DNA from: Nitrospira sp. bin75
Lineage (GTDB): Bacteria > Nitrospirota > Nitrospiria > Nitrospirales > UBA8639
NCBI GenBank assembly: GCA_002238765.1
Contig: MPMZ01000028.1
Coordinates: forward strand, 1 to 37,946
DNA length: 37,946 bases
Direction of reading: 5' to 3'
Of this stretch, positions 1,774-35,579 are shown in pieces. Every line of letters begins with the position of its first letter. The stretch's first letter is position 1. The notes under the pieces are model-generated. The model searched no databases, was not told where the DNA came from, and saw only the letters and a list, made by a program, of their open reading frames with translations. The position numbers and the translations under genes are program-made.

Positions 1774-2016
1774 ATGAAGGTGGCATTTAGCGAGCCCGCA
1801 AGAAGTAATCCGGGTTGTGAACTCCGTCTGGGGGTCGCATCATGGGATCAAGGTAGCAACAGCTTGAGATCCGTGAAGTTTGCTTGGTTCAGCAAAGATG
1901 GGAAGGTCGCCCGCGGGGGTGAATTTCCAGTTGAAGCCCTTCCTCAAGCACTCGATTTTGCGATCAGGAAAGGATACGTAAGTCTCGACTTTAGACAAGA
2001 AGAGCATAGTAGGTAA
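1774..2016 (+). CDS. Small unrecognised protein, 80 residues
   Basis: The ATG at 1774 follows a good ribosome binding site (GGGGGTGG at 1761-1769). The protein has no transmembrane segment. The pattern SLRSVKFAWFSKDGKVARGG followed by EFPVEALPQALDFAIRKGYV loosely resembles the strand-strand-helix layout of the PC4-like single-strand DNA-binding coactivator fold, but I would not name it on that basis. It is the first of three same-strand small genes (to 3192) with visibly lower GC than the housekeeping genes, and it sits behind an operator-like dyad. Function unknown. Confidence 0.55.
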   Translation: MKVAFSEPARSNPGCELRLGVASWDQGSNSLRSVKFAWFSKDGKVARGGEFPVEALPQALDFAIRKGYVSLDFRQEEHSR

Positions 2017-2127
2017 CATACGAACCTGCGGTATGCCCACGCACAGATCCGAATACCTCAATGCCTGACAGCGCTTGAGGATGGCTTAATGATCACACCT
2101 CTCAACTGCAAATGAAGGGAATTTCCA

Positions 2128-2370
2128 ATGAATTACGATCCAGCCCAGATCCTTCATGAAATCTTTAACTATATTAGAGACCACACTGAGGGCGCATATA
2201 CGCTTCAGGAAGCAGGCGTGGCGAAGAACGGTGAGGGCCAAAATTTGAAGGACAATTTGGCAGATAACAACCTTCTTCTTCTCGCATTATGCGCTTATGT
2301 CGAAGAGAAGACTAATGGTGAATATATCATCACCCGTGTAAAGCCCAGGTACGAGGGGACTAAGGAGTAA
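2128..2370 (+). CDS. Small unrecognised protein, 80 residues
   Basis: The ATG at 2128 follows GAAGGGAA, an acceptable ribosome binding site. The protein is acidic-to-neutral, starts MNYDPAQILHEIFNYIRDH and is probably mostly helical, with a short C-terminal strand pair (GEYIITRVKPRYEG). There is no signal peptide or membrane segment. It lies 111 bases after the preceding small gene and 15 bases before the next, so the latter two are probably co-transcribed. I do not recognise the family. Confidence 0.6.
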   Translation: MNYDPAQILHEIFNYIRDHTEGAYTLQEAGVAKNGEGQNLKDNLADNNLLLLALCAYVEEKTNGEYIITRVKPRYEGTKE

Positions 2371-2385
2371 CTGAAGGGAGAGGCC

Positions 2386-3192
2386 ATGAGAGTATCTAAA
2401 CCAAGAACTAAAACAAAAGAAGAAGCCCCAAAGACCAAAAACTTAAAACGATTTATTGTTGAACTTATTCGTCCTGGAAAACCTTCTAGCTTACACCCCG
2501 TTGAACCAGGTTCCAGTCATATGAAAGCTATAGAGGAATTGCCGCTTTTTGATGAGTTCAAAGAAGGGGACGAATTGCGCATCACCCATTTCTCAAACGG
2601 AATAACCTTGGCAACAATTAAAACATTCCTTTTCATTATCGCATCCGCTCTTTTGACGGTCGCATTGAACGCCCAAGATGTACACGCCATCACAAGGGCA
2701 GAGATTCTCGAAGGGTACAAAGCCGAATTGAAGCCGGACTACAATGACCCTTCGCTGAACCCTGCCGCTACCGCCCTGTGTCAATTAATAGCGAGACGCC
2801 TTCACCCTACTTTACCGGACACCTCGCAGTTGGATTACGACCTTGACGAAAAGCAGAACCAGTACTTTGAGAAAATAGCCATCCAACTTGACCTGGACAA
2901 GAAAACAAGGGGGCTTGTCGCATGGCGAATTTTTAGGGACGCTTGCAAGGCTGAAGTCGGCTACTATCAGGAGCCTTCTCGTTGGAATGGATGGAAGGGA
3001 AATTGGATCATCCAGGAGACAGAACAAGAGAAAGCAGAATGGCTACAATACAATCACTATGCAAAAAGGCTTAAGGATCTCTGTGATAAAGAGATAAAAA
3101 TATGGGAGAAAGCCGGTTCGCCGGGAGGGTCTTATGCCTGCAAGAATTGGCCACTAGGTTTTGATGCATGGCTGAATCAATTAAAGCGTTAA
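2386..3192 (+). CDS. Unrecognised protein with one internal membrane segment, 268 residues
   Basis: A strong ribosome binding site (GGGAGAGG) precedes the ATG. The N-terminal 70 residues are cytosolic-type and basic at first (KPRTKTKEEAPKTKN), with a beta-like segment KRFIVELIRPGKP. One hydrophobic helix follows at about residues 75-93 (TIKTFLFIIASALLTVALNA), then a largely helical C-terminal domain (about 95-268) rich in W, Y and charged residues with three Cys residues. The late position of the helix argues for a membrane anchor or a gene fusion, or for a start further downstream where the helix would act as a signal peptide (the context AINAQDVHA resembles a cleavage site). Family unknown; it appears to form a cassette with the small gene upstream. 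Confidence 0.6.
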   Translation: MRVSKPRTKTKEEAPKTKNLKRFIVELIRPGKPSSLHPVEPGSSHMKAIEELPLFDEFKEGDELRITHFSNGITLATIKTFLFIIASALLTVALNAQDVHAITRAEILEGYKAELKPDYNDPSLNPAATALCQLIARRLHPTLPDTSQLDYDLDEKQNQYFEKIAIQLDLDKKTRGLVAWRIFRDACKAEVGYYQEPSRWNGWKGNWIIQETEQEKAEWLQYNHYAKRLKDLCDKEIKIWEKAGSPGGSYACKNWPLGFDAWLNQLKR

Positions 3193-3486
3193 GGTGCTCA
3201 CTAGGAGATACCTCGACAAGGATCAAAAGGTGACTGTGCGGTTGATGAAGCGCAACTAAAGGATCTGCAACGGGTCGCCAACAGCTACAACATGCGCATG
3301 AGTAAGTTTAGCTGAGCCTGCATCCGGAAAAAATCATAAACGGCAAGCGCGCCGCGCCTTGGGACTAAAGCCTACTTGAGGGAGGCAGTAAAAAATCAAA
3401 CCGTTAGTCAGCACGTGCGACGGTATACCTTTGCACCCGAGCAAGATGGTGTCACTTAAAACAGTTTAATTAAGGAGGAACCCAAA
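3193..3486 (+). other. Gene-free interval with a possible tyrosine-recombinase remnant
   Basis: One frame is broken by stops but ends in YLREAVKNQTVSQHVRRYTF (about 3370-3432). This resembles the segment before the catalytic HTFRH motif of integron-type integrases (AVKxA..xxVSxHxxRHTFA). Only about 20 residues match, with no catalytic residues left, so this is suggestive only. Nothing else is seen in the interval, except a ribosome binding site AAGGAGG at 3472-3478 belonging to the next gene. Confidence 0.2.
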
Positions 3487-3885
3487 ATGGCAATTTTCGG
3501 AATTGGTGCTTTTTATAAAAAAGATGCAAGCCAAGCCTTCATTGAGGCGAATTTAGTAGGTATAGGACATAGCGTTGAGGAGGCTCCAGAATTGCACCAG
3601 TTTATGCGGGCCTTAAAGGTCGGAGATGTCGTCTATATTAAGTCATTTTCACCTAAGAGTCCTGAGATATTTATAAGAGGAATCGGTGTGATCACAGATG
3701 ATGAAGAAGTAAGGGATAGAGAGATAAGGGATGGAAGAGTTTCTTGCGGTCGTAACGTGAAATGGGTGGTCACTCAAGAGTTTCGCATTCCCAAACCTCT
3801 TGGAGAGAAGAATAATGTAAGGAATAACTCTATCTATGAAGAGTTTCAACATGAGGTTCAACGCTTGATCCTTGAGAAATTTTGA
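3487..3885 (+). CDS. Small protein with a PUA/EVE-like beta fold, 132 residues
   Basis: A very strong ribosome binding site (AAGGAGG) lies eight bases before the ATG. The pattern IFGIGAFYKKDASQAFIEA, then GIGHSVEEAP, then KVGDVVYIKSF and IFIRGIGVITDDEE is that of small EVE/PUA-like domains, in which GDVVYIK and IGVI form core strands. Such domains bind modified bases or RNA and are often found in or beside defence genes. No nuclease or NTPase domain is attached, so it would be a stand-alone reader or an accessory protein. The fold call is mine by pattern only. Confidence 0.6.
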   Translation: MAIFGIGAFYKKDASQAFIEANLVGIGHSVEEAPELHQFMRALKVGDVVYIKSFSPKSPEIFIRGIGVITDDEEVRDREIRDGRVSCGRNVKWVVTQEFRIPKPLGEKNNVRNNSIYEEFQHEVQRLILEKF

Positions 3886-3957
3886 AGGGCACCGTGATGA
3901 TGCGGAAATCCATAATGTCGCATAAGAATGATTATGTCAAATAATAAATTTCTTCAA

Positions 3958-4581
3958 CTATGATTCCATTCTGGGCTCGGTTCCCTCAAGCAAACGGAGG
4001 ATATTACCTTTATGTTTGGCAACAACCAGGCCACTCAAGAGAAGGCTGAATATCGTCCACTGTAGATCAGACGTCATGAACCAGCTTATCACCGGCAAGG
4101 CCACAAACGCCATGACCGCTCCCCCTGACGAATATCTCCAGATCCCGACAGTCGTAAGCCAGATCACCACGAGCACACCTCCCATGAGAAAGTGTATTCC
4201 CAGCATTCCTCCCAACGCCGTGGCAACCCCTTTCCCTCCATGAAACCTCAGGAAAATCGGAAAAATATGTCCAAGTACGACCGAAAGTACGGCTAGGAAG
4301 GCCCACGGATTCGAAAAAAAACCCAAGCTTGCGACCCATCCCACCAGCCAACCTTTTCCCAAGTCCCCGCATAACGTGAGAATCCCTGCCTTTTTCCCGC
4401 ATACTCGCAGGACGTTCGTAAAGCCGATGTTTCGACTGCCGGCCTGCCGAGGGTCTGGCGCTCCAAGTATATGCGAAAATACGAGTCCGAACGGAATGGA
4501 CCCAAGCACATAGGCGGCAAGGCAGGTAAGGGGCCCGAGAATCTCAGGTGACATAGCCTGCGACGATGTTACGGATTCCAC
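3958..4581 (-). CDS. plsY: Acyl-phosphate glycerol-3-phosphate acyltransferase PlsY
   Basis: This 207-residue integral membrane enzyme transfers an acyl group from acyl phosphate to glycerol 3-phosphate, the first committed step of phospholipid synthesis. The three family motifs are present: GSIPFG with GSRNIGFTNVLR (about 27-60), GHIFPIFLRFHGGKGVATALG (about 105-125) and KHKGNILRLLEGTE near the C-terminus. Five or so hydrophobic helices are visible. The start overlaps the end of pgsA by 13 bases, so the two phospholipid genes are probably translationally coupled. A slightly long N-terminus (about 10 residues) suggests that the internal ATG at residue 10 could also be used. Confidence 0.95.
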   Translation of the reverse strand: MESVTSSQAMSPEILGPLTCLAAYVLGSIPFGLVFSHILGAPDPRQAGSRNIGFTNVLRVCGKKAGILTLCGDLGKGWLVGWVASLGFFSNPWAFLAVLSVVLGHIFPIFLRFHGGKGVATALGGMLGIHFLMGGVLVVIWLTTVGIWRYSSGGAVMAFVALPVISWFMTSDLQWTIFSLLLSGLVVAKHKGNILRLLEGTEPRMES

Positions 4582-5195
4582 CCTTTTTTGGAAAACTCAT
4601 TCCAAGCTTCAAGAATATATTGTCCTGCAGAAACCAGGGAAAAGATCAGGGCCACGTAAAGAACCACGGTTCCGACCAGATGCACGTTCAGGACGGATAC
4701 GGAAATCGCACCTTCCAAGGTTAGAAGGATGATCGCAATAATCTGAAGTACAACTTTATATTTCCCAAGGGTCCCGGCGGCGATGATCAGGCCTCGACTT
4801 GCGGCGACAGCGCGCATTCCGGTCACGGCCAGGTCGCGGACAATGAGTGCAATCGCCAGCCAAGCCGCGACCCGCTGAAATTGCACGAGCAAGACCAACC
4901 CGGAAATCACGAGAAATTTGTCGGCAAGCGGGTCGATCAAGCGTCCGACTTTGGTGACTTGCGCGCGTTGCCGGGCAATATACCCGTCAAGTAAGTCCGT
5001 CAGGGCAGCCAAGCCAAAAACCGACGCGGCAAGAATTGACCTCATCACTGTCGGCGTTGAAAAGAGCCCGATATACACCGGCACCAACAATATTCGTAAA
5101 AACGTGAGCGAGTTCGGCAAATTGAACGTCCGCTCCACGCGTTTGGAGACGGGAACGGCTTTGGGTTGAGCTTTGGCGACGTGAGCTTGTGGCAT
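4569..5195 (-). CDS. pgsA: CDP-diacylglycerol-glycerol-3-phosphate 3-phosphatidyltransferase
   Basis: This enzyme makes phosphatidylglycerophosphate from CDP-diacylglycerol and glycerol 3-phosphate in the inner membrane. The CDP-alcohol phosphotransferase signature is intact: DLLDGYIAR, then G and D-P-L-A-D in VGRLIDPLADK (D-G-x2-A-R-x8-G-x3-D-x3-D). The family's usual start NLPNSLTFLRI lies about 25 residues from the chosen ATG at 5195, which is two bases after the kdsA stop. A TTG at 5237 would extend it by 14 residues into kdsA and is less likely. It forms an operon with kdsA upstream and plsY downstream. Confidence 0.94.
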   Translation of the reverse strand: MPQAHVAKAQPKAVPVSKRVERTFNLPNSLTFLRILLVPVYIGLFSTPTVMRSILAASVFGLAALTDLLDGYIARQRAQVTKVGRLIDPLADKFLVISGLVLLVQFQRVAAWLAIALIVRDLAVTGMRAVAASRGLIIAAGTLGKYKVVLQIIAIILLTLEGAISVSVLNVHLVGTVVLYVALIFSLVSAGQYILEAWNEFSKKGWNP

Positions 5196-5197
5196 GG

Positions 5198-6052
5198 TTA
5201 CAGGGTGACGTTCGAGCCTTTTCCGGAAACCTGACAAATCTGCTTCAACTCTTCAAGCAACTCTTTCAGTTTGTTCAGCGGGACCATCGTAGGCCCGTCA
5301 GATAGGGCATGATCCGGATTCGGGTGAACCTCCATGAAAAACCCGTCGCAGCCGGCCGCAGCGGCGGCTCGAGCCAACGGGGCAATGAATTCACGCTGGC
5401 CGGCTGAGTGTGTTCCCCCTCCTCCGGGAAGTTGCACACTGTGCGTGACGTCAAAGACGACGGGATAGCCCAACCCTTTCAAGACCGGAAGGGCTCGCAT
5501 ATCGACCGCTAAATTATTATAGCCGAACGAGAACCCTCTTTCAGTGAGGACGATCCGGCAAGTCCCGCTTTCTTCCAATTTTTTGACCACGTTGCCCATA
5601 TCCCATGGAGAAAGAAACTGCCCTTTCTTGACGTTAACGGTTTTTCCGGTTTGCGCCGCGGCGACCAGCAGATCGGTCTGCCTGCACAAAAACGCGGGAA
5701 TCTGCACCACGTCCACGACCTGCGCGGCCTGCCGGACTTCCTCGACACTGTGGACGTCTGTCAGGACTGGGACGCGAACCTTTTCTTTCACCCTTTGAAG
5801 AATGGCCAAGCCTTCTTCAATGCCGGGACCCCGGTAAGAATGAATGGAGCTTCGGTTCGCTTTGTCGTACGACGATTTGAAGATATAGGGAAATCCCACC
5901 GACAGGGCAACCTCGGCCAGTTGAAATGCCGTATCCAAAACCATCTGCTCACTCTCAATCACACAGGGCCCCGCAATCAGGAAATGAGGATGCCCTCCTC
6001 CACCCGGGAAATCCCCTAACGGCACTTCCTGCATCATGGTGTCTTTTTCCAT
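5198..6052 (-). CDS. kdsA: 3-deoxy-D-manno-octulosonate 8-phosphate synthase
   Basis: KdsA condenses phosphoenolpyruvate with arabinose 5-phosphate to give KDO 8-phosphate for the lipopolysaccharide core. The PEP and sugar-phosphate sites are visible: IAGPCVIES, IFKSSYDKANRSS, VNVKKGQFLSPWDM, DVTHSVQLPGG and FFMEVHPNPDHALSDGP. The Cys in GPCVIES (instead of the Asn of the E. coli enzyme) marks the metal-dependent class. I place the start at the ATG at 6052 behind AAAGG; a GTG at 6076 and an ATG pair at 6037 are alternatives. The gene is followed at once by pgsA. Confidence 0.96.
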   Translation of the reverse strand: MEKDTMMQEVPLGDFPGGGGHPHFLIAGPCVIESEQMVLDTAFQLAEVALSVGFPYIFKSSYDKANRSSIHSYRGPGIEEGLAILQRVKEKVRVPVLTDVHSVEEVRQAAQVVDVVQIPAFLCRQTDLLVAAAQTGKTVNVKKGQFLSPWDMGNVVKKLEESGTCRIVLTERGFSFGYNNLAVDMRALPVLKGLGYPVVFDVTHSVQLPGGGGTHSAGQREFIAPLARAAAAAGCDGFFMEVHPNPDHALSDGPTMVPLNKLKELLEELKQICQVSGKGSNVTL

Positions 6053-29419: not shown

Positions 29420-29803
29420 GCTCTCCGGTGAAGCGTTCGCAACCAGGGCTTTGTTGCCTTTCAGCCCGAAACTCGACGGATTGTGAAGAATGGAGGAAAA
29501 AATCCCGGAATTGGCTTTCAAATTCCGACTCGCGCGAAAATACCTGTTGTATGAACAATCGTGGAAATACCCTTCACATCATAACGAAGACAACATGGGA
29601 AAGCGACTATTTCGGTTTGCGAACTGCGGGCTTCAATGAGTGTCTGTCTTTTGTCAGAGGGCCGTGCAGATGTCGAGCCTTTCACCTGACTTGACAGTTA
29701 TTCACATGGGTACTTGACTCACGATTCTCTGACGCTTAAGAGTAGGTGGATTTCCAGGGCTCCTTATTCACTTCATCATTCGGTCATAGCGAAAGAACAA
29801 ACG

Positions 29804-32131
29804 GTGAATACGAAAAGACTTTTCTTCTGTTTCGTGGCGGCTTGTACCGCGGCGTTGTCCGGTTGCGGCGGAGGAGGCGGCGGGGGCAACGCCGGTCCCA
29901 GTCCCATGATGCCGACCGACCCATGCATCCAGACTTCCGACTTCGGGTGCATTTCGTCATCACGATACAGTCAGGAAGTGGAAAGGCTCAGGCAGACCCA
30001 CGGGGACTCGACGGATTTTTCCAATCAACGAGGACTGGGTGCCATCAATGCGGATCAAGCCTATGCCCACCTCGAACTGGCCGAAGGCGCAACCGTGGAG
30101 CCGGGTAAAGGAGTGACCGTCGGCTTGATCGATACGGGCATTGATACGGAGCATCCCTTATTCGCAGGCGCAACCATATCGGAAGAATTCCGCGCCGGGG
30201 CGTTTGATGAACGGGGCGGGAAATTTTCTCACGGTACGGCGGTTGCCAGTGTCATCGGGGCGCAGCCCACGGAGCACGCGAATGGCTTTCACGGTGTCGC
30301 CTGGGGCGCCGACTTGCAGATGTTCGCGATTCCGTTGGCAGATCCGCCGCCGCCGGGGACTCTCTATGGACCGACGGCACCGGGCTCCTTGGGAAGTGCC
30401 GATGCAGAAGATGCCATGCTCTATCAGTACGTCTTGAGACAAAGCATGGACATTCTGAATTTGAGTTTTACGACACCGGGCCTTATCAAGGACTACACCG
30501 AACAAGACATCCGTTTCGATTTTGGTCAAACCATTGCCGCCTTGGCACAGACAGGCGTTCAAGACAAAACGATCCTTGTCTGGGCCGCAGGCAATGCGAA
30601 TGACCGGGCTTGTACGCCGGGAACTGTCAATTGCAATCGAATGGATAATATGCTTGATGCGGATTCGCCTGAGATATACGCCGGCATGGTCGCGCGAATT
30701 GCGGAATTGCAAGGGCATTCCCTTGCCGTCGCCGCCGTGGACCGGAACGGCGACATTGCCAAGTTTTCCAATCGCTGCGGCATCGCCGCCGAGTGGTGCC
30801 TCGCGGCACCCGGTGTCAATGTTTCGGTGGCCTATTTCGGCCCCAACAACGGCATCCCCGGAAGACGGGTAACCGGCACGAGCAACGGCACGTCCTTGGC
30901 CGCACCGATGGTCTCCGGCTCGCTGGCGGTGATGAAACAACTTTTTCGCGATCAACTGTCAAACACGGCACTGGTGACCCGGCTTTTCGCCACCGCTGAC
31001 AAGAGCGGCAGGTACGCGAATAGAGCAATCTACGGACAGGGCATGCTTGATCTCGGGTCGGCAGCGGCTCCCGTGGGCGTGACAGATATCGCCCTCGGCA
31101 ACACGGTCGGCAGTCCCGGAGTCAATATTCAATCGACCGGCCTCCGGCTCGGCGGCGCACTCGGCGACGGACTGGGACAGGCACTGGCGGGTCAGGAAAT
31201 TGCCGCGTTCGACAGTCTGGGGGCCCCGTTCTGGTTCAAACTTTCCGGTTTCACCGGTGCGACCCGCGGACCATCTTCATTGATACGGCTTCGCGAGTTG
31301 ACGGCGCAGTCCCCCATCACGCGACACACTGCCGGCCGACTGATGACGTTCACGCCGGCCCGAGCCGGTGGTTCGATCGAACAGGATCTGGGGTATGGGA
31401 TGCTGCGATTCGGCTACAGGGAGAGACCCGCCGGTGCCAACGGTGGGCACTTTACATTGGCGGACAACGCCACGACGTTGACCTTCACCGGGTCCAACGG
31501 CATGTCGTTCTCGACATTTACCGCGTCCGGGTTTGCGGGCAGATCGCCGACCTCGGGAGTTGCGCTCGCGTGGCGGCCGTTTGACGTGCCGGTCGGCTTC
31601 CGCGCCGGTTGGCTGGCCGAGCAGGCCACCATGTTGGGGACTATGGCAACCGGTGCGTTTGGGCAACTCTCGGCAGATGCCGCTGTGACGGGTCTTGAGA
31701 CAAGTTTCGAGATCGGCCGCTGGCACCTTGCCGCAGATGCCGAGATCGGCAAGGCACACCCGCAGGTTCGCGGCGGCATCATAACCCGTATGTCCTCCTT
31801 GACCACCAGCGCCTTTGCCTTCAACGCCACGCGTCAATTGGCAAACGGTGGCTTGTTCCGCATCGTGCTCTCACAGCCTTTGCGCGTGGAAGGAGGCCGG
31901 GCCGCCCTCTCCGTTCCGACCGGCCGCACCAAGGACGGAGCCGTGCTGCGACAATCGGTATCGGCTTCGGTTGCACCGTCCGGCCGGCAGATCGATGTTT
32001 CGGCGCAATGGTATTACCCGCTGGTCAATGGCGAATTGCGTTTCGATGCGGCTTGGATGCACAACCCGGGCCATAATGCGAACGTGGACCCGGCAGTACG
32101 CTTCTTGGCGGGGTGGCAATTCGAGTTTTAG
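29804..32131 (+). CDS. Subtilisin-family (S8) lipoprotein autotransporter, SphB1/NalP-like
   Basis: From the GTG at 29804 the protein (775 residues) has a signal peptide ending in the lipobox ALSGC with Cys21, then a glycine run. An S8 protease domain carries Asp110 (GVTVGLIDTGID), His143 (KFSHGTAVASV) and Ser364 (GTSNGTSLAAPMVSG). The last 260 residues are Gly/Ala-rich alternating strands ending in FLAGWQFEF, with a terminal Phe as in outer-membrane autotransporter barrels. A lipidated subtilisin passenger followed by a barrel is the plan of SphB1 and NalP, which process other surface proteins. An earlier TTG (29714) would add 30 residues before the signal peptide and is unlikely. It is divergent from a 562-residue protein of unknown role. 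Confidence 0.88.
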   Translation: MNTKRLFFCFVAACTAALSGCGGGGGGGNAGPSPMMPTDPCIQTSDFGCISSSRYSQEVERLRQTHGDSTDFSNQRGLGAINADQAYAHLELAEGATVEPGKGVTVGLIDTGIDTEHPLFAGATISEEFRAGAFDERGGKFSHGTAVASVIGAQPTEHANGFHGVAWGADLQMFAIPLADPPPPGTLYGPTAPGSLGSADAEDAMLYQYVLRQSMDILNLSFTTPGLIKDYTEQDIRFDFGQTIAALAQTGVQDKTILVWAAGNANDRACTPGTVNCNRMDNMLDADSPEIYAGMVARIAELQGHSLAVAAVDRNGDIAKFSNRCGIAAEWCLAAPGVNVSVAYFGPNNGIPGRRVTGTSNGTSLAAPMVSGSLAVMKQLFRDQLSNTALVTRLFATADKSGRYANRAIYGQGMLDLGSAAAPVGVTDIALGNTVGSPGVNIQSTGLRLGGALGDGLGQALAGQEIAAFDSLGAPFWFKLSGFTGATRGPSSLIRLRELTAQSPITRHTAGRLMTFTPARAGGSIEQDLGYGMLRFGYRERPAGANGGHFTLADNATTLTFTGSNGMSFSTFTASGFAGRSPTSGVALAWRPFDVPVGFRAGWLAEQATMLGTMATGAFGQLSADAAVTGLETSFEIGRWHLAADAEIGKAHPQVRGGIITRMSSLTTSAFAFNATRQLANGGLFRIVLSQPLRVEGGRAALSVPTGRTKDGAVLRQSVSASVAPSGRQIDVSAQWYYPLVNGELRFDAAWMHNPGHNANVDPAVRFLAGWQFEF

Positions 32132-32286
32132 GTAGGAACTGACGAAGACGGCAGGTTTGAGCCTACCAGTTATTGCTTACATCTCATTGATCGCCAGATC
32201 AATGAGATCGTGGATTTTTATGACTGGTCGGTCGGGTCGTCACTCATGCATAGATTTCTCATTCCAAGTAGCCTCCTATGCTTGTC

Positions 32287-32700
32287 CTAGAAGTTTTTAG
32301 TGATCCTCGTTGAATATACTTTTCCCCGTGGCTTGTCGATTAGTGCCTTGTTTGTGAAATCCTGCTGCAAGTCATGATCATTTGAATACAGTAAACGGGC
32401 TTGACTGACCTGGGCCAACGCAATTATGTGCGGATCATCTGATTTACAGGTGCCGCTCTCTGCTAACCGTGCGGTCCTATCGTTGATTTCTTGATCATTG
32501 AAGCGTTTTGCCCGCCCTGATTTAATTGCTTCTCCGAACTAATTTTTGAAGCGTTGATCTTTAAGTTCTTTCGATAACTTACCGCCGACGACCAGTTGTC
32601 CGCTTCCTGAGTTGATCCACTTGAAGAACTCTTTACCAGCCGCCGGGCAATTGGTTCCGAATACCTGATGTACTACATTATTGTCGAGAATTGCACACAC
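32287..32700 (-). pseudogene. PIN-domain nuclease gene interrupted by one in-frame TAG
   Basis: This 137-codon frame starts at a GTG that shares one base with the ATPase stop (TAGTG). It encodes CAILDNNVVHQVFG (Asp6), VVGGKLSKELKDQRFKN, then a TAG at 32539-32541 (codon 54), then FGEAIKSGRAKRFNDQEI, SDDPHIIALAQVSQARLLYS and NDHDLQQDF. The PIN acidic residues are in LDNN, SDDPH and NDHD. Coding continues in the same frame across the stop, so a single nonsense change (TGG or CAG to TAG) is the simplest reading. It forms a two-gene unit with the ATPase. The interval 32132-32286 between it and the autotransporter has no gene. Confidence 0.8.
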
Positions 32701-34061
32701 TAGAAGAGTCCCAACGACCTTTCCGTCTCGTCCATGAAGAATTTTCGGTAGCTCTGCGGTGCATTCAGGACATTGCCCTCTTTATCCAGTCGCAGAGAAT
32801 GAATACGAACATCCAAGTCGCCACGCTCGAAGAATAGAATAGAAACGTCATCGGGTTTTAATTTTGTCTTGCCATCGCGAACATCCATACGCACCCGGTC
32901 AAGCAGGTGGTCACTATGGGTCTCGACTACCAATTGACACTCCGAATTGGCAGTTTGACAAAACAGGCTGCCCAGAGCTGCCTGGGCACTGGGATGAAGA
33001 TGTACTTCCGGTTGCTGTAATAAAAACATGGGTGGTACATCCTGGCGTAGCAACTCAGTCACAACAGGCAACACTTGGCTGACGCCATAGCCAACATCAA
33101 TCAGGTTACGATGTAGCCCCATCGATTTGCTCCCAAATTTTCTGACCTGCACTTGAAATGGCCCACTCTCTTTTTGCCCCAGAGGCTTAACCGATATTTC
33201 ATCGAAAAGACCGGCTGACTGCCCAAATTTCTCAAGCGAAACCTTTAGTGCTTTCCATTGTTGCTTGTTCTGAAAATGCACGTTGGCGAGATACATGGGA
33301 ATGTAATCGCCAACTGAATCCCGTGTCGGGCGAGAAGGATCGTAGGTCCTATGCGGTTTTGAACGGACTGGAGCGCTGGCATATGGGCGCCATGTTGTAT
33401 CGCCAAACATCGGCATCCTAATTCTGACAATCTCATCAAAGAGTTTCCAATCTTCATCTGTTGGTTGAGTAGATTAACCTAATGACAAAAACTTAAATTC
33501 ACCGTCTTTCTTTCTACTTTGTGTCAAATGCCTTAACTCTAATAGAAGGAAAAAAATAGATGATATCGAGTGAGCTTCTCCAAGCGTACTGATGGCAACA
33601 GGCACTTCCCACTGCCACGCGCCGTTTGGTGTACCAAGGCCAACCTGCTGAGACTGGTCTTTCTCTTGAAATTCAACCCAGGCATCTTCGTTGTGGGATA
33701 GATGTATTCTTACAGGAACCGGCACAGTTCCTTTCTTTCCGAACGTAACCCTGAAGCGATGGTGAACATCCATTTCTCCTCTGCCCCTGTATGCATAACC
33801 AAATACAGCATCAAACCTATCCGCTCGACCACCTCTTCCACCTCGATGGTGAGCGATTTCGTCAAAACTGCCGAGATCATACGGATCCTCCTTGAAATCA
33901 GGGATGAGCCCCTGACATGCAATATCCCACAGTGCTCGGATCATCGCCATGAAAGAAGTTTTGCCGGTGCTGTTCTCGCCCACGAGCAGGGTCAAGGGTG
34001 CTAGACGTGCGGTCTGCTCTTCCCGAAAGCAGCGGAAATTTTCAAGTGTAATGCTATCCAC
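32700..34061 (-). pseudogene. AAA (OLD/SMC-like) ATPase with DUF3696-like C-terminus, one in-frame TAA
   Basis: The gene of 453 codons starts MDSITLENFRCFREEQ with Walker A GENSTGKTS (about 28-36). The frame is stopped once, at TAA 33474-33476 (codon 196), and then continues in the same frame for 19 codons (STQPTDEDWKLFDEIVRIR) before the next ATG. Beyond it are LIDVGYGVSQVLPVVTELL (signature-like), FLLQQPEVHLHPSAQ (Walker B), VETHSDHLLDRVR (H-loop) and a C-terminal IHSLRLDKEGNVLNAP with FFMDE, as in DUF3696. Such ATPases are common in prophage and defence loci. The nonsense codon splits it into 195 and at least 238 residues, so it is probably inactive unless read through. Confidence 0.85.
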
Positions 34062-34220
34062 AGGACTGATGCTCCTTAGGTTGACGCGGGAATTCTGAGG
34101 ACAGTTTACTCAACCCATCTTAACATTTTGGCCTTAACACTTGAGCGTATAAACTTGGCAAAATTGGCCTCAAATCTCAGTGTGAGTCCAAGTCAAGATA
34201 CTCCAATGAAAACGTGACGC

Positions 34221-35579
34221 TCACTCACGAACCTGTCCCGAGCCATACACAACATATTTGGAGCAGGTCAGATCTTCGAGCCCCATGGGGCCTCGAGCAT
34301 GAATCCGCGTCGTGCTGATGCCTATTTCCGCACCCAAGCCGAATTGATAGCCGTCATTGAGGCGTGACGAGGCATTGACCATCACGGCCCCGGCATCGAC
34401 TTCCTGCAGGAACCTCATGGCACGTCCGTAGTCCTTGGTCACGATGACTTCGGTATGCCGGGACCCATACGTCCGGATGTGATCCATGGCCTCATCCATA
34501 TCCTTCACCACTTTGACGGCCAAGGTCAGGGCGAGAAACTCCTGACCATAATCCTCTTCCGTCACGCTTTGGGCCTCGGGAATATATTGACGGGTTTTTT
34601 CACAGCCGCGTATTTCCACGTTGGCCTCGGTCAGGGCCTTACCCGCCTTCGGCAAGAAAGTTCTGGCAATGTTGTTATGAACCAATAAGGTCTCCATGGC
34701 ATTGCACGTGGAGGGCCGTTGAACCTTGGCGTTGACACTAATGGCTTCAGCCATCTTGAGATCAGCATCGGCATCGATATAGGTGTGGCAGACGCCTTTA
34801 TCATGCTTGATCACCGGGATGGTCGAGTTTTCGGTTACGAGTTGCATCAGTGACTCCCCGCCCCGTGGAATAATCAAATCGACGAATTGATCCTGCTTCA
34901 GCAGTTCCAGTACCGCCTCCCGTTCGGTGCGTTCGACCAGGGAAATAGCCCCTTCGGGAATACCGGCTTTTTGACCGGCTTCGGATAACACGCGGGCAAT
35001 GGCCATATTGGAATGAATGGCTTCCGACCCGCCTCGAAGCACGCAGACGTTCCCGGATTTGAGACACAGTGCCGCGGCATCGGCCGTGACGTTCGGGCGG
35101 GATTCGTAAATGATCCCGATAACTCCGATAGGCACGCGGATTCGTCCAACCTTCATGCCATTGGGCCGTTCCTGCATGCCTGATGATTGACCAACGGGAT
35201 CGCGTAACTTGGCAATTTGCCGCAGCCCGTCCGCCATGTCCTGCACGCGCTCGGGAGTCAGTCGAAGGCGGTCAGCCATGGCCTCCCGGCCATTACTCGT
35301 GTCAAAGGCTTCAAGATCTTTCTCGTTTTCTTCCAGGAGCGTGTCCGTGGCTTCTTCCAACCCTTCGGCCATGGCCACCAGAGCCTCATTCTTGACCGAT
35401 GCCTGCAGCCGACTCAGTTGGGGAGCGGCGGCTCGTGCCCGTTCCAAAAGCGCACGAAGATACGTCGGGGTATCGACAATCTCTTCTTCGACGATCTCTT
35501 CCTCGGGACTATCAACGGGTTCCGTCGACTCGTCTATCTCTTCTTCGTTCAGTTCTTCTTGGGTTTCTTTAGTGCTCAT
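34221..35579 (-). CDS. proA: Gamma-glutamyl phosphate reductase (ProA) with acidic N-terminal extension
   Basis: ProA reduces gamma-glutamyl phosphate to glutamate semialdehyde in proline synthesis. The protein shows GVIGIIYESRPNVTADAAALCLKSGNVCVLRGG, LIIPRGGESLMQLV, KHDKGVCHTYIDADAD and the catalytic Cys in RPSTCNAMETLL. The C-terminal part has ASSRLNDGYQFGLGAEIGIS and GPMGLEDLTCSKYV. The family is about 415-420 residues; here 452, because of an N-terminal tail in which 17 of the first 38 residues are acidic. The tail is in frame behind a good ribosome binding site (GGAGAAC before ATG). No proB is adjacent. It overlaps no neighbour; the ATPase lies 160 bases downstream. Confidence 0.96.
   Translation of the reverse strand: MSTKETQEELNEEEIDESTEPVDSPEEEIVEEEIVDTPTYLRALLERARAAAPQLSRLQASVKNEALVAMAEGLEEATDTLLEENEKDLEAFDTSNGREAMADRLRLTPERVQDMADGLRQIAKLRDPVGQSSGMQERPNGMKVGRIRVPIGVIGIIYESRPNVTADAAALCLKSGNVCVLRGGSEAIHSNMAIARVLSEAGQKAGIPEGAISLVERTEREAVLELLKQDQFVDLIIPRGGESLMQLVTENSTIPVIKHDKGVCHTYIDADADLKMAEAISVNAKVQRPSTCNAMETLLVHNNIARTFLPKAGKALTEANVEIRGCEKTRQYIPEAQSVTEEDYGQEFLALTLAVKVVKDMDEAMDHIRTYGSRHTEVIVTKDYGRAMRFLQEVDAGAVMVNASSRLNDGYQFGLGAEIGISTTRIHARGPMGLEDLTCSKYVVYGSGQVRE

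What the first reader, a model, noticed from the sequence alone, without database searches (positions are those of the whole stretch)
32287..34061. AAA-ATPase/PIN cassette, each gene broken by a single in-frame stop
The DUF3696-like ATPase (TAA at codon 196) and the PIN gene (TAG at codon 54) overlap by one base (TAGTG). Each continues in frame after its stop with recognisable motifs. No frameshift is seen in either. ATPase-plus-nuclease pairs are a common plan for abortive-infection systems, and an ATPase paired with a PIN effector would be a less usual combination. Two independent nonsense changes suggest recent disabling of a costly system, or possibly stop-codon read-through.
Basis: partly seen in the sequence, partly recalled or inferred. 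Interest (0 to 1): 0.6.

Follow-up and report, generated by a model that had tools for sequence, protein, structure and literature searches.

The report
Broken ATPase–PIN nuclease defence-like pair
A two-gene module (a DNA-repair-type ATPase followed by a small PIN-type RNA-cutting enzyme), found intact and side by side in many bacteria and probably a phage-triggered suicide switch, was horizontally acquired by this bacterium and now carries three premature stop codons, so this copy is most likely dead.

Summary
On the minus strand lies an SMC/PtuA-type ABC ATPase (GTG 34061; TAA 33474-33476; frame ends TAG 32700-32702). It overlaps by one base a PIN-fold gene (GTG 32700; TAG 32539-32541).

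The pair is real. In 77 of the 80 closest relatives, and in all 10 Nitrospirota copies sampled, a PIN gene lies directly behind the ATPase. PIN folds like VapC (Z 10.2), the ATPase like SMC heads and PtuA (Z 18-22). PADLOC's best match is Menshen NsnB; it has no model for this PIN.

Here the cassette sits between convergent genes that are directly adjacent in eight congeners. Its closest relative is from another phylum. All 128 highly conserved residues are intact and no suppressor tRNA was found.

Best reading: a recently inactivated copy of a horizontally spread ATPase-sensor/PIN-RNase module, probably abortive-infection defence working like PARIS. Defence itself is inferred. Sequencing error cannot be excluded. 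New variant of a known kind.

The parts
33477..34061 (-). ATPase, N-terminal lobe (195 codons, GTG start; Walker A GENSTGKTS)
   Evidence: family alignment A4
33474..33476 (-). premature stop 1, TAA at ATPase codon 196, in the variable inter-lobe segment
   Evidence: (1 TAA inside)
32700..33473 (-). ATPase, C-terminal lobe in the same frame (QQPEVHLHP Walker B, ETHSD, DUF3696 tail); ends with TAG 32700-32702
32542..32700 (-). PIN gene, first part (53 codons from GTG; first two conserved acidic residues), overlapping the ATPase stop by one base
32539..32541 (-). premature stop 2, TAG at PIN codon 54, at a column that is nearly invariant in the family
32290..32538 (-). PIN gene, second part in the same frame (SDDPH and SND acidic motifs)
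   Evidence: (profile match 32242-32697 with 2 TAG inside)
32218..32286 (-). remaining 3' end of the PIN frame (DKHRRLLGMRNLC...) to TAA 32218-32220
32132..34220 (.). inserted cassette (about 2.1 kb, 47% GC against 54% for the window) between convergent genes that are 10-181 bp apart in eight congeners
29714..32131 (+). left flank: intact S8 serine protease/autotransporter-like gene
34221..35579 (-). right flank: intact proA (glutamate-5-semialdehyde dehydrogenase)

Best explanation
The locus is a recently inactivated copy of a horizontally spread two-gene module. Gene 1 is an ABC ATPase of the SMC/Rad50/PtuA-head type with a DUF3696-like tail, related to Menshen NsnB and PARIS AriA. Gene 2, probably translationally coupled, is a single-domain PIN ribonuclease with the four conserved acidic residues. 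Shown: conserved adjacency and order, folds, active-site conservation, insertion at an otherwise empty site, cross-phylum relatedness, three in-frame nonsense codons. Inferred: the ATPase oligomerises, senses infection and restrains the PIN protein; an infection cue makes it release or activate the PIN RNase; that RNase cuts tRNA, rRNA or mRNA and stops growth (abortive infection), as AriA/AriB do in PARIS. Here the stops leave neither gene able to make a full product, so the module is off.
For: Adjacency: PIN directly 3' of the ATPase in 77 of 80 loci, spacing -16 to +23 bp, mode 3, twelve with a one-base overlap as here; 10 of 10 in Nitrospirota; also in two viral contigs at 27-29% ATPase identity. 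Co-inheritance: ATPase and PIN distances correlate (Mantel r 0.64, 0 of 2000 permutations as high). Folds: PIN model pLDDT 95, best match a VapC, Z 10.2, rmsd 2.8, 122 aligned; ATPase pLDDT 90, SMC head Z 22.1, PtuA Z 18-20. Active-site conservation: PIN D6, E45, D110 at least 90% and D91 invariant, all kept in the window. Defence kinship: NsnB 7e-47, PDC-M55A 9e-34, HEC-03B 2e-30, AriA 3e-21. Some relatives sit inside Hma (DUF1156/DUF499) or type III restriction loci. Acquisition: empty site in eight congeners, lower GC, nearest relative from Binatota rather than Nitrospirota. Inactivation: three stops, no suppressor among 47 tRNAs, other copies also broken (L047, L068, L103, L117; G283).
Against: No experiment ties this family to phage defence; most immediate neighbours of relatives are ordinary metabolic genes and the window has no PADLOC hit outside the pair. 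Three nonsense changes with no missense change at 128 conserved columns is somewhat unlikely under plain neutral decay (about 0.01; 0.04-0.06 if the first stop was selected), so error, selection or something else may have contributed. Reads were not available. The PIN substrate and the ATPase trigger are unknown.
Confidence: 0.6

Rival explanations
1. Assembly or sequencing artefact: the pair is intact in the cell, and the three stops are errors or strain mixtures in a draft assembly.
For: The genome is a draft of 115 contigs. All 128 columns that are at least 95% conserved are unchanged in the window, which is what an intact gene would show. Neutral decay giving 3 nonsense and 0 conserved missense has P about 0.01.
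Against: Three independent substitutions, all to stop codons, in 2 kb while no indel is seen and the flanking genes are uninterrupted is an odd error pattern. Assembly errors would be expected as indels or random substitutions.
Confidence: 0.2
2. Stop-codon read-through or recoding: TAA and TAG are decoded conditionally, so the module is expressed at a low level or only under stress.
For: Amino-acid sequence downstream of each stop is fully conserved. There are few missense changes for the number of nonsense changes.
Against: All 47 tRNAs have sense anticodons. Two different stop codons are involved. No intact relative has stops at these positions. No RNA element is recognised. Neighbouring long genes use normal stops.
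Confidence: 0.05
3. Split ATPase: the TAA falls between the two ABC lobes, so N- and C-lobes could be made separately and still assemble; only the PIN gene is dead.
For: The stop lies in the variable, low-confidence inter-lobe segment, and an in-frame ATG at 33416 precedes the conserved PVRSKP motif. G283 has a lone TGA in the same segment, with its PIN gene open.
Against: Only 2 of 10 Nitrospirota copies show it. A close relative of G283 is intact (G288). With the effector gone there would be little left to select for.
Confidence: 0.05
4. Toxin-antitoxin-like maintenance module with no defence role: the ATPase neutralises the PIN toxin, and the pair persists by addiction. (This concerns the function of the intact family; the window copy would still be a remnant.)
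For: PIN folds like VapC. The PIN gene is lost or broken while the ATPase stays open in L047, L068, L103 and L117. Many copies sit singly among metabolic genes.
Against: No VapB-like partner. The ATPase is related to defence ATPases, and some copies are embedded in restriction or Hma loci. The distinction is partly semantic, since PARIS is also described as toxin-antitoxin-like (PMC11455837).
Confidence: 0.2

Closest known systems
PARIS (AriA ABC ATPase + AriB TOPRIM nuclease)
   Same: Two-gene ABC-ATPase plus separately encoded RNA-cutting nuclease; AriA models hit this ATPase (3e-21). In PARIS, AriA sequesters AriB and releases it on infection, and AriB cuts tRNA-Lys (PMC11455837).
   Different: The effector here is a PIN domain, not TOPRIM. 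AriA is not the best-scoring model, and the trigger is unknown.
Menshen (NsnA-NsnB-NsnC)
   Same: NsnB is the best PADLOC match of the ATPase and of all four relatives tested (1e-40 to 7e-47). Both end in a DUF3696-like tail.
   Different: No NsnA (GmrSD_N/DUF262) and no NsnC beside it. A Menshen-like operon with GmrSD_N, DUF3696 ATPase and a third gene exists elsewhere in the same genome (L197).
PADLOC candidates PDC-M55 and HEC-03
   Same: ATPase components PDC-M55A and HEC-03B match at 9e-34 and 2e-30. Some relatives are embedded in Hma loci.
   Different: No PADLOC model of any kind matches the intact PIN partners at E up to 10.
Septu / retron Ec78 PtuA-PtuB
   Same: ATPase head fold (Z 18-20) with a separate nuclease gene.
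   Different: PtuB is an HNH nuclease (established knowledge); here the nuclease is PIN. Sequence similarity of the ATPases is mostly confined to the P-loop region.
VapC PIN RNases (VapBC)
   Same: PIN fold (Z 10.2) and the acidic active-site set.
   Different: Partner is an ABC ATPase instead of a VapB antitoxin; Pfam PIN reaches 22.7 bits in the G009 relative, below its cut-off of 23.6.
PIN-effector defence systems DS-3 and DS-5 (DefensePredictor, PMC13092281)
   Same: PIN ribonuclease active site shown there to be needed for phage defence.
   Different: DS-3 is a single protein; the DS-5 partner is a DUF5830/AcrIF4-like protein, not an ABC ATPase.

Membership tests
PARIS | AriA-type ABC ATPase | tested here: inconclusive
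   AriA models hit at 3e-21 but NsnB scores far higher
PARIS | AriB TOPRIM nuclease encoded beside it | tested here: not met
   Partner has PIN fold, Z 10.2 to VapC; no PADLOC hit
Menshen | NsnB-type DUF3696 ATPase | tested here: met
   NsnB E 7e-47 over residues 2-450
Menshen | NsnA (GmrSD_N/DUF262) in the operon | tested here: not met
   Neighbours are an S8 protease and proA; GmrSD_N/DUF262 is not among the listed families of the relatives' neighbours
Menshen | NsnC effector | tested here: not met
   Downstream gene is a PIN protein; intact relatives of it have no PADLOC match
PDC-M55 (PADLOC candidate) | M55A ATPase | tested here: inconclusive
   E 9e-34, second-best model
PDC-M55 (PADLOC candidate) | its second component beside it | tested here: inconclusive
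   PIN partner matches no PADLOC model, but what the second component is was not known to me
ABC ATPase, SMC/Rad50/PtuA head type | Walker A, Walker B and two-lobe head fold | tested here: met
   GENSTGKTS and QQPEVHLHP kept; Z 22.1 to SMC head, pLDDT 90 for the intact relative
PIN ribonuclease | PIN fold | tested here: met
   pLDDT 95 for the intact relative; top matches VapC, Z 9-10
PIN ribonuclease | conserved acidic active-site residues | tested here: met
   D6, E45, D91, D110 conserved in 75 sequences and present in the window
PIN ribonuclease | ribonuclease activity | not testable with these tools
   needs biochemistry
VapBC toxin-antitoxin | VapB-like antitoxin beside the PIN gene | tested here: not met
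   partner is the ATPase in 77 of 80 loci
Abortive-infection defence system | phage protection with growth arrest | not testable with these tools

The most novel reading that the evidence does not exclude
The intact family is an undescribed two-gene immune system: a PIN-RNase branch of the Menshen/PARIS-like ABC-ATPase systems. It is concentrated in sponge-associated bacteria, exchanged across many phyla, and repeatedly switched off by inactivating the effector or the sensor.
Probability: 0.4. Interest if true: 0.6.

Novelty: new variant of a known kind. Interest (0 to 1): 0.42.

Why it matters
The broken copy is in itself ordinary, but it points to a widespread, tightly conserved ATPase-PIN pair whose effector has no model in the defence library searched. 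If it defends against phages, it adds a PIN ribonuclease to the TOPRIM and HNH effectors known to be paired with SMC-like ATPases. It would also be a concrete case of immune genes shared across phyla inside sponges, where defence genes are reported to be enriched and laterally transferred (PMC8163846). Repeated loss of the effector with the ATPase kept would be a natural record of its cost.

Tried and rejected
Suppressor tRNA: all 47 tRNA genes found in the assembly were typed; none reads TAA, TAG or TGA. Structured RNA or recoding element: no Rfam match in 31900-34400. Plasmid or phage carriage: the PIN protein has no tblastn match in the plasmid or phage collections; DUF3696 ATPases on plasmids are only about 25-42% identical. 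PADLOC models for the PIN partner: none, also for intact relatives. PHROGs: nothing meaningful. Solved structures by sequence for PIN: only VapC at E 0.61 plus chance hits; the fold search settled it. A second ATPase-plus-small-gene pair in the same genome (L196) was first read as a second PIN pair; profile comparison gave 1.3% probability, so I drop that reading. Defence-island enrichment: PADLOC families are clearly present among 147 immediate neighbours (Hma, HEC-01, methylases) and absent from 29 other window genes, but most neighbours are metabolic, so this is weak support. Literature: 'DUF3696' occurs in one unrelated paper; the Menshen polymorphism paper (PMC12065111) is not held.

Full report
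What is there. On the minus strand the window holds an ATPase reading frame from GTG 34061, interrupted by TAA at codon 196 (33474-33476) and ending at TAG 32700-32702. It overlaps by one base a second frame that starts at GTG 32700 and is interrupted by TAG at codon 54 (32539-32541). With the stop written as X, the ATPase aligns end to end with intact relatives: 66% identity to G009, 59% to G007. The second frame aligns with the gene that follows the ATPase in those relatives.

A third stop. In relatives that protein continues for another 15-20 residues (NKNFTKTHKRLLSRQDLCRT in G009). The window, read past its TAG at 32287-32289, gives F*DKHRRLLGMRNLCMSDDPTDQS* with the next stop at 32218-32220. 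An independent profile search placed the match at 32242-32697 with two TAG codons inside it. The pair therefore carries three nonsense codons (TAA, TAG, TAG) and no frameshift.

The pair is a real two-gene system. A scan of species genomes with the ATPase alignment gave 80 best loci. In 77 a PIN gene of the same family lies directly behind the ATPase. Where its start could be placed (76 of these, plus the two viral contigs) the spacing is -16 to +23 bp, most often +3, and twelve share the one-base overlap seen here. Of the other three, two end with the contig and one (L068) keeps only the two ends of the PIN gene around a deleted core. In a phylum-wide search that did not select for PIN, all ten Nitrospirota ATPase copies had the PIN gene beside them. 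Two viral contigs with 27-29% identical ATPases have it too. ATPase and PIN distance matrices correlate (r 0.64, none of 2000 permutations as high).

What the proteins are. The ATPase has AAA_15/AAA_21 domains and a DUF3696-like tail at Pfam's threshold. A model of the intact G009 relative (pLDDT 90) matches SMC heads at Z 22 and PtuA at Z 18-20. PADLOC ranks NsnB of Menshen first (7e-47), then PDC-M55A, HEC-03B and AriA. The small protein of G009 is modelled at pLDDT 95 and matches VapC PIN ribonucleases at Z 10.2. Its acidic residues D6, E45, D91 and D110 are conserved across 75 sequences and are all present in the window copy. No PADLOC model matches intact members, and Pfam's PIN model stays below its cut-off.

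How it got here. In eight congeners the S8 protease gene and proA are directly adjacent, 10-181 bp apart. The window carries about 2.1 kb between them, at 47% GC against 54% for the window. No transposase or integrase frame is seen in the insert. G009 has a transposase-like frame in the same gap and keeps its own ATPase-PIN pair elsewhere on the chromosome. In the tree the window ATPase pairs with a Binatota sequence (support 88, 69% identity), not with its congener. Near-identical sequences occur in Latescibacterota and Gemmatimonadota. Horizontal spread is therefore well supported, although deep forks of the tree are weak.

Ecology. At least 19 of the 80 records carry bin prefixes that fit the seven sponge species of PMC8163846, and others are named Entotheonella or Synechococcus spongiarum. 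I read this as a sponge-holobiont bias. It was not tested against a seawater background, and a query that itself comes from a sponge-associated lineage (as its congener's record name suggests) would favour it.

Is it dead, and how recently? All 106 ATPase and 22 PIN columns that are at least 95% conserved are unchanged in the window, so inactivation is recent or only apparent. A mutation-spectrum calculation gives P about 0.01 for three nonsense and no conserved missense change under neutral decay, or 0.04-0.06 if the first stop was favoured by selection. This is a mild anomaly that leaves room for assembly error. Suppression is unlikely: none of 47 tRNA genes has a stop-reading anticodon. Decay is seen elsewhere in the family too: broken PIN genes beside open ATPases in L047, L068, L103 and L117, and a single TGA in the inter-lobe segment of the G283 ATPase. 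The 80 loci were picked for good ATPase matches, so the absence of broken ATPases among them is not informative.

How it most likely works. By analogy with PARIS, where AriA holds AriB and releases it on infection to cut tRNA (PMC11455837), the ATPase is probably the sensor and restraint and the PIN protein the RNA-cutting effector. Kinship to defence ATPases, placement of some relatives inside Hma and type III restriction loci, and recurrent effector loss fit this. The trigger, the RNA target and phage protection itself are not shown. PIN ribonucleases with other partners have been validated in phage defence (PMC13092281).

Verdict. The system is a new variant of a known kind, not a member of PARIS (no TOPRIM) or Menshen (no NsnA or NsnC). 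This copy is most likely a recent remnant.

Noticed in passing
L197 (G000:C40:16000-24000), 1947-5282: Menshen-like operon in the same genome: GmrSD_N (DUF262) protein, DUF3696 ATPase and a 312-aa third protein, directly followed by an adenine methyltransferase gene.
   Followed up: partly
L196 (G000:C36:16000-26000), 4050-5989 minus: A second DUF3696 ATPase (469 aa) overlaps a 177-aa gene without Pfam match that has PIN-like spaced acidic residues but no detectable profile similarity to the PIN family here; possibly another ATPase-effector pair.
   Followed up: partly
L068 6360-6500; L047; L103; L117: PIN gene broken or its core deleted while the upstream ATPase frame is intact, in separate lineages; in L068 only the first 12 and last 14 or so residues remain.
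   Followed up: partly
L202 / G283:C32:24615-25925: ATPase of an otherwise intact pair with a single in-frame TGA in the inter-lobe segment, the same segment as the window's TAA.
   Followed up: partly
window 32181-32208: Perfect 12-bp hairpin followed by a T run on the + strand, between the S8 protease gene and the cassette; likely terminator of the protease gene or a mark of the insertion edge.
   Followed up: no
L180 (G009:C1:1662000-1670000), about 2845-4145: In G009 the gap between proA and the S8 protease holds a transposase-like frame instead of the ATPase-PIN pair, so the gap may be a repeated insertion site.
   Followed up: no
L118, L119: Viral contigs (IMG/VR) that carry a distant ATPase-PIN pair (27-29% ATPase identity).
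   Followed up: no
L005 / G012:C47 and L004 / G007:C116: Congeners carry the pair between type III modification and restriction genes (G012) and between DUF1156 methylase and DUF499 ATPase genes (G007).
   Followed up: partly
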